Of a stretch of DNA of 64,000 nt, positions 23,653 through 32,894 are shown piece by piece. Within the stretch, counting starts at the first letter, position 1. Each line of letters begins with the position of its first letter. Position numbers and translations under genes: made by a program. This DNA is from Romanomermis culicivorax (lineage: Eukaryota > Nematoda > Enoplea > Mermithida > Mermithidae): the NCBI GenBank assembly GCA_963922205.1, contig CAWUHX010000364.1, positions 1 through 64,000 of the forward strand, given 5' to 3'. Below the pieces are notes generated by a model. It ran no database searches, was not told the DNA's origin, and saw only the letters and a program-made list of their open reading frames with translations.

Positions 23653-25393
23653 ATGAAGTCGGAAGCTGATCTCCCTTCACAGATCGAGAACAAAGTCCAG
23701 GCAGCATTTGAGAATGCTCTTGGACCCCTCAACCAAAAGTTAGAGGCCATGAATGGTCGGAGGCACCCTCCCGTGTCCAGCTTTATGGCCCCTCCCACCT
23801 TCTCCGGTGCTTTTGGTGAGTCTATCACCGATTTTATGTCGCATCTTACTCGTTTCTTTACACTCCAGGGTGTAAGCGAAACGGATCATGCGTATAAAAT
23901 CGCTTTTCTGGAGTCATGCCTCACGGGTCCTGCTCTCGCCTCCTACCGGGACTTTAGCAGCAGCACTCCAATACCTACCCGCTACGAAGAGTTTACGGCT
24001 TTTCTACGGAGAGATTTTCCGGTAGGGCGCGACTCTGATCTGCATCAGCAGCTGATCCAAGATCGACTGCAGAAGCCGACAGAGTCCGCGATAGTCTACC
24101 TTGAGCACCTCAAGAGACTATCCAGGGTAGCGTATCCAGATCTCGCGACGGATGTCCGAGACTCTATCATCAAACCTATCTTTCTGCGGGGACTGAAGCC
24201 GGTCCTCCGAGATAGTATCAAGTTTAGGGAGTTCACGATTCTTGAAGAGACACTCAAGGCAGCCTGCTACGCAGAATCCCAAATCTTTCGGGACGAGATC
24301 CGGTACACTGCTCCATCTAACGCCATTTTCTCTTCAGAACCTAAACACGCCGGATATAATCCCGATATGCCTAACAGAAGCGCAAACAGTCGTCAGAGCA
24401 ACGCTCCAACGTCGTCATCCTCCGCCGATGAGGTTCGCCGCTTGAAACAGGAAATGGCCAGGCTCACGGCCCACGTAGCGAAGCTCACGGCCCAGCAACG
24501 TGCACCCACGCCAATCCAACAGACGCCGCCTCCACAGCCGTCGACACCAAATCAGTCCGCCGGGCGACGCTCATCAGGAGCACACCTTCAAACGTGCTCC
24601 TTCCACGGACTGTGTACACATAGCGACGCCGACTGCCGGGCCCAGCGTCCCACCGGTGCCGCTCCCGGTAACAACGCCGCTAACGGTGGTCGCTGTTATT
24701 TTTGCCGTACACGTGCCCACCCCACGGACCAATGTGATAGGCCATGCCCTCATTGTCGTCAAGTGCGAGTGCACCGATCAACTGCCTGTCCGCAGCGCAA
24801 TCCGGCAAACACGGGTGAGAATGTCTACCAAGATACTGGTTATTCTTCCCAGGGGACAAATGTGTATCATCAAAGAAATGGTTATCACCCTCCCAACGGG
24901 ACAGGAAACCATTATCGGCAGCCCATACGCCGCAACAACGCCGTTGGGGCTACCGATGGCCCTCCTCATCCAGATCCTCTTGACCTGGATGATGAGGCAC
25001 TTGCTGAACACCTGACAGATTCTTCACAACAGTGTTATCCTGTCTGCGTAATCAGTATTGGATTTTCAGTGGTCCAAGCAGCCCAGGTACCCGCACCGAT
25101 GAACGTATCGGACATACCTCTGTCACCACCACCACCAAAGTATGCGATGCCGGTCACTCTGGACCCCTCGACGACACCGCAGTTTGTTGGCCACGCTAAC
25201 ATCCTCGCATCGTATCGCATTCCTAAAATTAAGACTGCCGAGCCAGCTCCAGCCGCGAACACGACGTCTTCGGCGCCACCGGCCCGCATCGTCCCTCCAG
25301 GACCACCGCCTTCGATCCCCACGGATTCGGCTACGGAAGTCCTCGACCAGGTCGAGCCCATGAATTTGTCAGGTATACTACCTTCTTCTTCAG
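23653..25393 (+). CDS. gag: Gag, N-terminal and nucleocapsid part
   Basis: This is the start of a frame that stays open to 28962. Residues about 50-210 have the helical retrotransposon-gag (capsid) pattern, with AFLESCLTGPALASYRDF and a later ADEVRRLKQEMARLTAHV coiled segment near 258. Then come a Cys/His cluster (about 317-330) and two zinc knuckles: CX2CX4HX4C from Cys348 and CX2CX5HX4C just after it. A Pro-rich linker follows. Gag packages element RNA and forms the particle. At about 25394 the natural-looking protein leaves this frame, although the frame itself has no stop; see the next entry. The start is the first ATG of the frame in a plausible position. Confidence 0.88.
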
Positions 25394-25428
25394 GTGATCC
25401 TAGAGTAGGAACCAGAAATCTATCTCAG

Positions 25429-26195
25429 TCCACGACTCTATCGATTTCTTGTTCACAGCGCCATCGCCCGTCCAAGACGCGATGTTGGCCATCTGGTCAG
25501 TCGACCTGGCCAAGAAATACCCGCATTTGCCGTGGACTCTCCTCAACGAGCCATCAAATGTCGAAGCACTCACGGCCGCCGACGTCGTGCTTGCAGCACC
25601 CGTCTCAATGCGCCTCTTACGACCCGACATCGCCCGACGGGCACTCGAGTTCATTGCCAATGGGACTATCACCATCTCGCCCGTCGAGAAGTTCTTATTG
25701 GACGGGGAGCCATCCTCGCCTTCAGTCGATGCCGTCCGCCGAGCAGTCGAACAGGCCAGTCGGATCCTCCTGCCTGCTGCCGCCGCTACATCACCGGCAG
25801 CAGCGCCTCCTGTTGCCGCGACATCGCCAACAAAAATGGACATTACTGCTTCCTCGCCCCCGGCTAAGGAACCCGCAAATGATCCTACACCGCCGGCAAC
25901 AGCCCAACATACATCGTCGGCAACAGCCCAGGTTAAATCCCCGGCACCAGCCCAAACGACATCTCCGACCGCTGCGACCAAGTCGCCCGTCGTCGAACAC
26001 ATGGCCGTCGACGAGACCTTACGTCCGGTTAACGAAGATGTCAGCATCGTTGAGGAATCCCCGTTCCCAACGGCAGTCGCCCCACGGTCGCCGAAAATCG
26101 GTATCCTCCGGGAAATCCACCCGTGCGGTGGATTGGTCCTCGATTTCCCCGGCCAGGAACCAATCTCGTCCGACAGCGACGAAGAAGAAATCTGA
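25429..26195 (+). CDS. Gag C-terminal part in a second reading frame
   Basis: From about 25405 the next frame is open to a TGA at 26193-26195. It reads as an ordinary protein: a folded-looking start (DAMLAIWSVDLAKKYPHLPW), then an Ala/Pro/Thr-rich linker and an acidic end (SSDSDEEEI). The upstream gag frame over the same bases gives only Arg/Ser/Pro-rich sequence. The switch falls at a 35-nt stretch (25394-25428) that begins GTGATC after CAG and ends TATCTCAG, so removal as a tiny intron, or a programmed or accidental frameshift, would connect the two. Function is unknown; it may be a gag C-terminal domain. Confidence 0.6.
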
Positions 26196-31164: not shown

Positions 31165-32391
31165 AAAGGTCAGTCTAATGGTAATGCTGACGCATTATCA
31201 CGCCTGCCGGATCCTAACTCCCTCACCGGTCAGAGTATTGATGATACTCCCCTCTACAGACCTGAGGGGCACGTTATGATGATCACCGATGGTGCGCAGC
31301 ACCTGGCGTGATCGAGGACCTTGACCGATGGTGTGCAGCACCTGGCGCGTTCAAGTCATTCAGCACCGATCACCGTTGGCGCGGAGCGCCCGGTACGATC
31401 AGAGTCTTATGCCGAGATATCCGTCGGTGCGCAGCACCCCGACCTTTTCGCTGCTCAGCTGGAGGATCCGGAGTTAGCCGACATCATTCGCTCTCTTAAG
31501 CCTCTCGGCGACCAGAATGATGTGCGAGGCTACCATCTGTTGGATAACGTCCTTCAGAAATGGACAGGCGAGTCCAATAAGATCGTCATACCCAGATCCA
31601 TGGTTACTACCATTATCCGGGCTCATCACGATGACATCTTAGCTGGACACTTCGGTGCTAAACGTACTGCGCGGCTCATTGCTCGCAGATACCACTGGCC
31701 CTCCCTCAGTCGGGATGTCAAGTCCTTCTGTCAGCGGTGTGATCTTTGCCAACGGAATAAGCCCGCTCGACAGAAAACCACTGCGACCCTGAAACCTATC
31801 ACCATAACGGGACCGTTTCACCGGGTAGGTGTCGACTGCATGGGACCAATGACCACTAGCGAAGCTGGCAACCGTTTCATCGTTGTCTTTATTGACTACT
31901 TTACGAAATGGGTCGAAGCTTTTGCTACTCCGGACATCACTGCGCACACCATAGCCCGGCTGTTTGTAACGCAAATTGTCTGTCGGCACGGGGCACCGCA
32001 GATTCTTCAGTCAGATCGCGGCACTGATTTCACATCAAAACTGATGACTGAGATCACTGCGATCTGCGCTACGAAGAAAATCCACTCTACCGCCTATCAC
32101 CCGATGACCAACGGCGAAGTGGAAAGAGCTAATCAGACGCTAGCCACACGGCTACGTATGTATGTTCATCAAGGACATACTGATTGGGATGAACACCTAC
32201 CATACGCTGTGTTTGCCGTCAATATCAGCATGAATGAGTCAACAGGGTACTCGCCCTTTGAACTCATGTACGGTCGCACACCCATGCTCCCTGTTGATGC
32301 CGCGCTCTCATTCAACCCTCCGGCCCATATCATTAATGTTTCCTCATATGATATGGAGGTCAAACGTCATTTCACGAATGCATTAACCTTA
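31165..32391 (+). CDS. Pol: RNase H end, linker repeats and integrase, truncated by inversion
   Basis: It is in the same frame as the preceding pol part, with a second TGA at 31309-31311. Before the integrase, a short repeat of the type (I/L)TDG(A/V)QHLA occurs about four times (31280-31440). The integrase zinc-binding domain has GHFGAKRTARLIARRYHW, then CQRCDLC. The catalytic core has Asp171, Asp232 and Glu268 (numbering from 31321); the 35-residue gap between the last two is the D,D(35)E signature. The core stops matching integrase at the 14-mer ATGCATTAACCTTA (32378-32391), where inverted LTR sequence begins. The C-terminal domain lies on the opposite strand downstream. As it stands the gene is broken. 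Confidence 0.88.
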
Positions 32392-32894
32392 GCTACAGCT
32401 GCAGCTTGGGCGGAGTTTCTCGGCGCTCAAGCTAACTTCTGCAGCTAGACGCGATGCAGAAGATGCCTATGAGCACATAGACATTTTTTCATTCACATGC
32501 GTTTAGCACTGAGGCCGGCTGCAGTGCCTATGCTAAGCATATGAACGTCTTTAGCTAAAACTTCTTAGCTAGTCGTTTTGCGTAACAAAAACGAGGCTAA
32601 TTTTTGATGATAAGAGGTGCGTGAGCGCACCAAAAATAGCCATGTGCTCGTGGAGCACGACTGGCGGAAGTTTTTAGCTAAAGGGCCTACTGTAGCCCGC
32701 GTTTGTAAAGAAATAAAAAATACAACAAAACGAAACATAGAAATGCATGAAAAATATAAAAACGAACGTAAAATGCATGTGTAAAAATGAAATAAACAAA
32801 AGCATGTTCGAGTAATAAACGAAACATGAAAAAATAACAAAATGTCGGCATGATCAGGATCACGTGACGTTGGAGAATTGAGCGGCACGTGACA
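32392..32894 (-). repeat. Inverted first 503 bp of the 3' LTR
   Basis: Reverse complement of 18516-19018 with very few differences; I saw one G/C change near 18809. Its outer end TGTCAC on the - strand lies at 32894, next to the element's 3' internal sequence. Confidence 0.93.

What the first reader, a model, noticed from the sequence alone, without database searches (positions are those of the whole stretch)
23653..32448. Retroelement with an envelope-like glycoprotein between gag and pol
Seen: in one continuous frame, gag with zinc knuckles is followed by a signal peptide, a Cys-rich glycosylated ectodomain and a transmembrane helix, then a protease, then RT/RH/IN. Known: env-bearing LTR elements and retroviruses place env after pol. 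A gag-env-pol order would need its own expression logic and suggests independent capture of a viral glycoprotein gene.
Basis: partly seen in the sequence, partly recalled or inferred. Interest (0 to 1): 0.92.

Follow-up and report, generated by a model that had tools for sequence, protein, structure and literature searches.

The report
Nematode retroelement with mid-genome envelope gene
A recently active family of virus-like jumping genes in a nematode carries a captured viral membrane-fusion protein in the middle of its long protein chain, between the shell protein and the copying enzymes, instead of at the end where envelope genes of this kind are normally found.

Summary
The core observation holds. 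The window carries a complete, recently inserted Ty3/gypsy-type LTR element, 18516-34768, wider than reported. Its order is gag, signal peptide, ectodomain, TM, protease(s), RT, RNase H, integrase. The glycoprotein is a class III fusion protein (Pfam Monjiviricetes_fusion above cut-off; fold like herpesvirus gB and rhabdovirus G), so viral, not host. This copy is damaged (in-frame stops, 3'-end inversion), but 45 of the 61 best-scoring genomic copies lie in one open frame of at least 3,084 aa; the part of env compared among copies is under purifying selection (pN/pS 0.11). The layout is not a one-off: four further families here have env before protease and RT in frame (gag knuckles seen in two), and four polyproteins from other sources run gag-env-pol. 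Env and RT trees largely agree, suggesting one old capture. The only relative found with this env after integrase is BEL/Pao. Between gag and env lies an overlapping selected ORF (X). Most likely mechanism (inferred): flavivirus-like topology, with Gag cytosolic, Env lumenal via an internal signal, enzymes on Env's cytosolic side; X from a spliced mRNA. My searches found no published gag-env-pol element.

The parts
18516..19973 (+). 5' LTR (1458 bp, TGTCAC...GTGACA); 4-bp target duplication GTTT at 18512-18515
   Evidence: 99.6% identical to the two 3' LTR pieces; found at both ends of 9 other copies
19974..19991 (+). primer binding site starting TGGCGAGGCTGG at the LTR edge
   Evidence: identical in 9 of 9 other copies; tRNA species not identified
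19974..23652 (+). 3.7-kb leader, no codon periodicity in the part compared (from 20400); best-scoring donor-like site of the region scanned at 23044
23653..25372 (+). gag: capsid-like domain (23821-24267) and two zinc knuckles (24694-24789)
   Evidence: PF19259 24.8-27.1 bits, below its cut-off 29.1; motifs; 24 of 35 variable columns of 23653-24449 at codon position 3 in 11 copies
25482..26195 (+). X: overlapping ORF in the -1 frame (237 aa from its first ATG), likely accessory protein
   Evidence: pN/pS 0.23 in this frame against 2.42 in the main frame, no stop in either frame in 7 of 7 copies; best of 610 acceptor-like sites at 25393
25440..26208 (+). main-frame linker between gag and env: open, amino-acid sequence not conserved
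26209..26340 (+). internal signal sequence (hydrophobic core 26275-26313); nearest upstream in-frame Met 79 aa away
26341..27888 (+). class III fusion glycoprotein ectodomain (PF24664 match 27109-27540)
27889..27945 (+). transmembrane helix core
   Evidence: highest 19-residue hydropathy in the ORF, 2.14
28120..28590 (+). PR1: first aspartic-protease-like segment (DTG ... LILGLDF), provisional
   Evidence: motifs; pN/pS 0.21; 32-residue pairwise similarity to PR2, E 6e-4; Pfam E 0.2, below cut-off; no usable model
28591..28961 (+). Arg/Ser-rich linker, ended by an in-frame stop in this copy
29110..29379 (+). PR2: retropepsin
   Evidence: PF13975 28.3 bits, cut-off 28.2; pN/pS 0.01 over 29062-29500
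30085..30567 (+). reverse transcriptase core
   Evidence: PF00078 9.1e-35; best solved relative Ty3 RT, E 8.4e-89
30754..31143 (+). RNase H
   Evidence: PF17919 and PF17917
31588..32103 (+). integrase zinc-binding and core domains
   Evidence: PF17921, PF00665
32390..33830 (-). segment inverted in this copy: first part of the 3' LTR and integrase C-terminus (ORF 33912-33415)
   Evidence: inverted relative to 10 of 10 other copies
33831..34768 (+). remaining 938 bp of the 3' LTR; GTTT follows at 34769-34772
62701..63948 (-). LTR of a sister element (element 2) that continues beyond the window
   Evidence: about 70% DNA matches to the LTR; env C-terminal part 84.6% and PR1 88% identical, in frame, on the minus strand at contig 68300-69800

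Best explanation
This is a Ty3/gypsy-type LTR retroelement of a nematode that captured a class III fusion glycoprotein from a virus (probably a negative-strand RNA virus) and kept it between gag and the protease in one reading frame. SHOWN: order and identity of the domains, continuous frame in most of the best-scoring copies, purifying selection on the parts of env compared, recent transposition, the same env-before-protease layout in diverged families, and agreement of env and RT trees. INFERRED: the unspliced RNA is translated as Gag-linker-Env-PR-RT-RH-IN. As the internal hydrophobic signal emerges, the ribosome is docked at the ER. Gag stays cytosolic, the ectodomain enters the lumen, the TM stops transfer, and PR-RT-RH-IN is made on the cytosolic side. 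Signal peptidase and the element's protease(s) separate the parts, as in a flavivirus polyprotein. The enzymes could thus enter particles as the cytosolic tail of Env rather than only as Gag-Pol. The overlapping ORF X is probably made from a spliced mRNA that skips gag, as an accessory (possibly RNA-export) factor.
Against: No RNA or protein data. In the X interval the main frame is not conserved at the amino-acid level (pN/pS 2.42), so it might be bypassed by splicing. Donor-like sites inside gag (23815, 24814) paired with acceptor 25393 would keep the main frame, so a spliced Env-Pol mRNA is possible (generic splice weights typed from recall, not trained on this host). Family E (L045), P0007 and P0009 have a Met within 9 aa of the signal core, and P0003 and P0004 have one at or in a hydrophobic stretch there, so a separate env start is possible in those. 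The env model has mean pLDDT 56.8, pTM 0.32 and TM-scores near 0.3. The N-terminal two thirds of env were not read in other copies of the window family; the first 24 codons compared gave pN/pS 0.69 on 3 variable sites. P0004 has no gag in its listed protein. Family C reads DCG where D[TS]G is expected in its protease (L046). No env-less Ty3 elements were put in the trees, so a single capture is suggested, not proved.
Confidence: 0.62

Rival explanations
1. Same element, but Env is made retrovirus-style from a spliced mRNA: a donor in the leader or early gag joins an acceptor near 25393 or 26208, giving Env-Pol with a new N-terminus; the continuous frame is incidental.
For: The best-scoring donor (23044) lies in the leader and the best of 610 acceptors (25393) at the end of gag; donors 23815 and 24814 with acceptor 25393 would stay in frame with env. 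P0004 has env-pol without gag in one listed protein.
Against: The first AUG after 25393 is that of X, not env. The acceptor just before env is weak (rank 35 of 610). No Met within 38 aa of the signal core in 5 of 10 elements. A frame open from upstream into env in several diverged families needs another explanation.
Confidence: 0.27
2. Gag and X are joined by a small splice (86-nt GT-AG segment 25373-25458) or by -1 frameshifting, so Gag-X is the main structural product and only ribosomes staying in the main frame make Env-Pol: an inverted gag/pol ratio control. Not exclusive with the preferred model.
For: Removing 25373-25458 would join gag to X in frame (worked out by hand); acceptor 25458 ranks 5 of 610; the codon-position signal switches from the gag frame to the X frame between 25425 and 25442.
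Against: Donor 25372 ranks only 35 of 725; no classical slippery heptamer seen by eye.
Confidence: 0.25
3. An isolated accident: a viral or host gene fragment inserted into one dead element, or an assembly artefact.
For: The window copy is damaged: in-frame stops and an inversion.
Against: 61 scored copies, target duplications, purifying selection, diverged families and other sources with the same order.
Confidence: 0.01
4. Repeated independent captures of related glycoproteins at the same place rather than one old capture.
For: A related glycoprotein also occurs after integrase in a BEL/Pao element, so it does move between element types. Env-less Ty3 relatives were not sampled.
Against: Env and RT trees share 5 of 7 splits and conflict only below 70% support; distances strongly correlated.
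Confidence: 0.08

Closest known systems
Atlas virus and related nematode Belpaoviridae (PMC9094657, passages read)
   Same: Nematode LTR element; single continuous polyprotein (2828 aa) that includes a captured viral fusion protein
   Different: Order Gag-Pol-Env; env is class II (phlebovirus Gc-like); BEL/Pao, whose Pao-type domains did not match the window ORFs
Tas element of Ascaris (mentioned in PMC9094657 and PMC7642597, passages read)
   Same: Nematode element; PMC9094657 reports weak env similarity to herpesvirus gB (class III)
   Different: BEL/Pao, env downstream of pol. The two papers disagree on the source: PMC7642597 gives Phlebovirus for Tas. Here P0010 is a BEL/Pao element with a related env after integrase
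Anakin: chuvirus glycoprotein in mosquito BEL/Pao elements (PMC7642597, passages read)
   Same: Glycoprotein of a negative-strand RNA virus captured by an LTR element
   Different: BEL/Pao; position of the glycoprotein not stated in the passages I read. A follow-up (PMC10084718, passages) reports no clear evidence of such capture by Gypsy elements
Errantiviruses (Gypsy and kin); ICTV Metaviridae profile (PMC7879559, whole text)
   Same: Ty3/gypsy-type pol and LTR structure; env
Cer1 of C. elegans and its CERV protein (PMC10309623, passages read)
   Same: Nematode Ty3/gypsy element without a stop between gag and pol; accessory protein from a spliced mRNA; X may be comparable
   Different: No recognised envelope glycoprotein; [quoted passage not shown] no sequence comparison of X with CERV was made
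Flavivirus-type polyproteins (recalled)
   Same: Capsid, internal signal, lumenal glycoprotein, TM, cytosolic enzymes in one chain
   Different: Unrelated proteins; positive-strand RNA viruses; similarity is of topology only

Membership tests
Metaviridae (Ty3/gypsy) | RT/RNase H closest to Ty3 | tested here: met
   best PDB relatives Ty3 RT 4ol8 (8.4e-89) and Ty3 Gag-Pol 7q5b; Pfam RT_RNaseH_2, RT_RNaseH. No tree with reference retroelements was made
Metaviridae (Ty3/gypsy) | pol order PR-RT-RH-IN | tested here: met
Metaviridae (Ty3/gypsy) | LTRs TG...CA, primer site, short target duplication | tested here: met
   TGTCAC...GTGACA, TGG-starting site, 4 bp in the window copy and 6 of 9 others
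Metaviridae (Ty3/gypsy) | Ty3-type capsid | tested here: inconclusive
   PF19259 24.8-27.1 bits, cut-off 29.1; no gag hit in the PDB at E<0.1
Metaviridae (Ty3/gypsy) | polypurine tract before 3' LTR | tested here: inconclusive
   25 bases before the LTR identical in 9 of 9 copies but not a clear purine run
Metaviridae: env, where present, downstream of integrase (ICTV description) | env position | tested here: not met
   env lies upstream of PR in the window family and the Ty3-type relatives examined. A description of known members rather than a criterion of the family
Errantivirus | env downstream of pol | tested here: not met
Errantivirus | baculovirus F-like (class I) env (recalled) | tested here: not met
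   matches class III families and folds
Belpaoviridae (BEL/Pao) | Pao-type domains (PF05380, DUF1758, DUF1759, DUF5641) | tested here: not met
   no match at E<=0.1 in the window ORFs, present in P0010
Class III viral fusion glycoproteins | profile match above curated cut-off | tested here: met
   PF24664 49.5 bits, cut-off 27; 7 of 7 env sequences of A1 match at E<=1, best 4.5e-20
Class III viral fusion glycoproteins | gB/VSV-G fold | tested here: met
   model of modest confidence, C-terminal half poorly modelled
Class III viral fusion glycoproteins | membrane fusion activity | not testable with these tools
   -
Flavivirus-like polyprotein logic (works like) | capsid - internal signal - glycoprotein - TM - enzymes in one frame | tested here: met
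Flavivirus-like polyprotein logic (works like) | signal peptidase cleavage between capsid and glycoprotein | not testable with these tools
CERV-like accessory protein | made from a spliced mRNA and needed for RNA export | not testable with these tools
   splice-site ranks only; X has no Pfam match at E<=1

The most novel reading that the evidence does not exclude
An old, diverse clade of animal Ty3-type retroelements replaced the gag / gag-pol ratio scheme with a membrane-threaded polyprotein: Gag cytosolic, a class III fusogen lumenal, and PR-RT-RH-IN as the cytosolic tail of the envelope protein, so that the enzymes ride into particles on Env. The gag-env interval serves as a slot for RNA-regulatory modules (overlapping X here, an in-frame RRM domain in two relatives).
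Probability: 0.4. Interest if true: 0.93.

Novelty: new variant of a known kind. Interest (0 to 1): 0.88.

Why it matters
Known envelope-bearing LTR elements and retroviruses place env after pol and make it separately or at the end of the chain. A gag-env-pol order shared by diverged elements breaks that rule and implies a different way of sorting Gag, Env and Pol. It also shows a retroelement lineage that kept a captured class III fusogen through deep divergence while still transposing. It makes testable how a retroelement can run an internal signal sequence through a Gag-Pol polyprotein, and how fusogens pass between RNA viruses, BEL/Pao and Ty3-type elements.

Tried and rejected
Rejected: absence of LTRs (one search found none because it began at 20000 and the 3' LTR is partly inverted; one search resolved it). 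Rejected: integrase C-terminus as a separate minus-strand gene (inversion). Rejected: a gag-env stop seen in family E locus L045 as a conserved terminator (present in 1 of 3 copies). Inconclusive: SL1 RNA search (0 hits, but nothing rang in the 14 controls either); PR1 structure (pLDDT 38.5) and PDB search (no clear hit); X function (no Pfam match). Rfam scan of the window: 0 families; ARAGORN: 0 tRNAs. Not achieved: a whole-genome count of env copies with the window env as query; that request did not complete. The 61 RT copies (of 9747 first-look candidates) and 68 PF24664 matches (of 2320) are lower bounds and the best-scoring ones. No exogenous parent virus was found: the env profile search gave 1 protein, P0006; the two single-protein searches gave 2 proteins among 7992 scored candidates (a capped list) and 5 among 3592, the query included. 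Organisms of P0003, P0004 and P0006-P0010 are not named by the tool. P0010's env relation rests on the search (7.5e-21) and blastp (2.5e-27); Pfam shows no PF24664 match in it at E<=1.

In element 2, integrase was looked for in the window end by tblastn and not found there; the matches at 62701-63948 are LTR.

Literature: ten searches (one search was rejected for its wording and did not run). One search asked for at least two of six phrases such as gag-env-pol and env upstream of pol and gave no paper; a paper with only one of them would not have been listed. I saw listings of these searches, passages of nine papers (PMC12440569, PMC10309623, PMC7642597, PMC10084718, PMC9094657, PMC8556966, PMC6238403, PMC5177903, PMC5408684; of the first also outline and abstract) and the whole of PMC7879559. 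Only open-licence PMC papers are held, so absence from print is not shown.
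Full report
WHAT IS THERE. The element in the window is larger than reported. A 1458-bp 5' LTR (18516-19973) and a 3' LTR (33831-34768, its first 506 bases lying inverted at 32894-32389) are 99.6% identical, and the element is flanked by GTTT. The internal part has a primer site TGGCGAGGCTGG, a 3.7-kb leader without codon periodicity where compared, then gag, env, protease(s), RT, RNase H and integrase in one frame. This copy is damaged: in-frame stops separate its ORFs and 32390-33830 is inverted compared with 10 of 10 other copies. Undamaged frames exist elsewhere in the genome: of the 61 best-scoring copies of the RT ORF, 45 lie in an open frame of at least 3,084 aa. 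In nine other copies the LTR pairs are 97.4-100% identical and six of nine keep a 4-bp target duplication, so the family moved recently. The host is a nematode by its 50 matches to the cuticle-collagen domain PF01484 (0 of 14 control genomes; that the domain is nematode-specific is recalled).

IT IS MAINTAINED. Among 8 copies (window included) pN/pS is 0.11 for the env C-terminal part (27463-28100), 0.21 PR1, 0.33 the RS linker, 0.01 PR2, 0.08 RT, 0.09 RNase H, 0.05 the integrase part read. The rest of env was not read in other copies of this family, apart from 24 codons at its start (0.69 on 3 variable sites). In family D, whose 12 aligned loci include broken copies, the ectodomain varies mostly at third codon positions from about its second quarter on, and the spacer before it does not.

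THE LAYOUT IS OLD AND SHARED. A PF24664 scan of the genome scored 68 matches, all over cut-off, in frames up to 2578 aa. I held 30 of these loci: they form four families (13, 10, 3 and 3 loci) and a singleton. In 15 of 30 the frame runs from ectodomain through TM to a protease motif (ILG in all 15; D[TS]G also in 7; family C has DCG in L046); in the other 15 it is cut and they are uninformative. Zinc knuckles lie upstream in frame in families B and D; in C and E none was seen in the stretch held. RT lies downstream in the env frame in one member each of the four families (4 of 4; 45 and 106 bases between the pieces were not read in B and E). Element 2, next to the window, has env followed in frame by PR1, about 5 kb upstream of its LTR; its gag, RT and integrase were not read. 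Proteins from other sources: P0003, P0007, P0008 and P0009 are single proteins starting with Met with zinc knuckle(s), env, PR, RT, RNase H, integrase in this order; P0003 and P0007 also carry an RRM domain between knuckle and env. P0004 has env-PR-RT-IN but no gag in the listed protein. P0010, the one relative with this env after integrase, is a BEL/Pao element; its env relation rests on sequence searches, without a Pfam PF24664 match. Env and RT distances over 10 elements correlate (r 0.78, 0 of 20,000 permutations) and the trees share 5 of 7 splits, conflicts being below 70% support. This suggests one old capture and co-inheritance; env-less Ty3 elements were not included.

THE GAG-ENV INTERVAL. 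Between 25440 and 26195, variable columns in 7 copies fall 41/14/10 on the third, second and first codon positions of the -1 frame. pN/pS is 0.23 read that way and 2.42 in the main frame, yet neither frame has a stop in 7 of 7 copies. Given the X peptide, the main frame would be open by chance with probability 0.0003 (codon usage of the rest of the element), 0.058 (X's own usage) or 0.034 (synonymous shuffle). The best of 610 acceptor-like sites of 19974-32390 (25393) lies 88 bases before the first X ATG, and the best of 725 donor-like sites (23044) in the leader, under generic recalled weights. Both sites are unchanged in the copies compared (7 of 7 and 11 of 11), which is weak evidence at this divergence. 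X is therefore most simply a spliced accessory protein; Cer1 CERV is a precedent for such a product (PMC10309623, passages). An 86-nt segment whose removal would join gag to X in frame is a rival.

HOW IT MOST LIKELY WORKS. In families A-D and P0008 the nearest Met lies 39 to 134 aa upstream of the signal core although the frame is open for at least 224 aa upstream. This fits an internal signal sequence inside a polyprotein. The predicted topology puts Gag and the enzymes in the cytosol and the ectodomain in the lumen. This is the same logic as a flavivirus polyprotein (recalled), not a relationship. Family E (L045), P0007 and P0009 have a Met within 9 aa of the signal core, and P0003 and P0004 one at or in a hydrophobic stretch there, so some lineages may start Env-Pol separately. 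The feature common to all ten elements is env upstream of protease and RT in one frame (integrase seen in the window family and the five proteins).

NOVELTY. ICTV describes Env in Metaviridae as downstream of integrase (PMC7879559, whole text). Atlas virus is Gag-Pol-Env (PMC9094657, passages). A survey found no clear capture of Jingchuvirales glycoproteins by Gypsy elements (PMC10084718, passages). Nothing in the listings and passages I saw from ten literature searches described a gag-env-pol element; the library is open-licence only. I rate it a new variant of a known kind: an env-bearing LTR retroelement with, as far as I found, an undescribed order and probably an unusual expression logic.

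Noticed in passing
28120-28590 and 29110-29379: Two tandem aspartic-protease-like segments; the other families and relatives show one where read. Only the second is well supported.
   Followed up: partly
P0003 residues 500-555, P0007 residues 419-475: An in-frame RNA recognition motif between the zinc knuckle and env in two relatives: the gag-env interval seems to accept RNA-binding modules.
   Followed up: no
L042, minus strand, first 718 bases of the oriented locus: Family B also has a second open frame (239 aa) overlapping the gag-env spacer; copies too similar to test for selection.
   Followed up: no
P0010 residues 1872-2212: A BEL/Pao element with a related env after integrase: the same glycoprotein family in two element types at opposite positions.
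   Followed up: partly
32390-33830: Inversion within the element in the window copy, spanning the integrase C-terminus and the start of the 3' LTR; real or assembly origin not tested.
   Followed up: partly
bases before the 3' LTR in L010, L012, L014, L016, L018, L020, L024, L026, L028: No clear polypurine tract; the 25 bases before the LTR are identical in 9 of 9 copies.
   Followed up: no
47461-48266: Tandem-like direct repeats (about 74% identical, offset about 98 bases).
   Followed up: no
40276-40764 and 52230-52718: Two ORFs of equal length (162 aa) without a Pfam match over cut-off.
   Followed up: no
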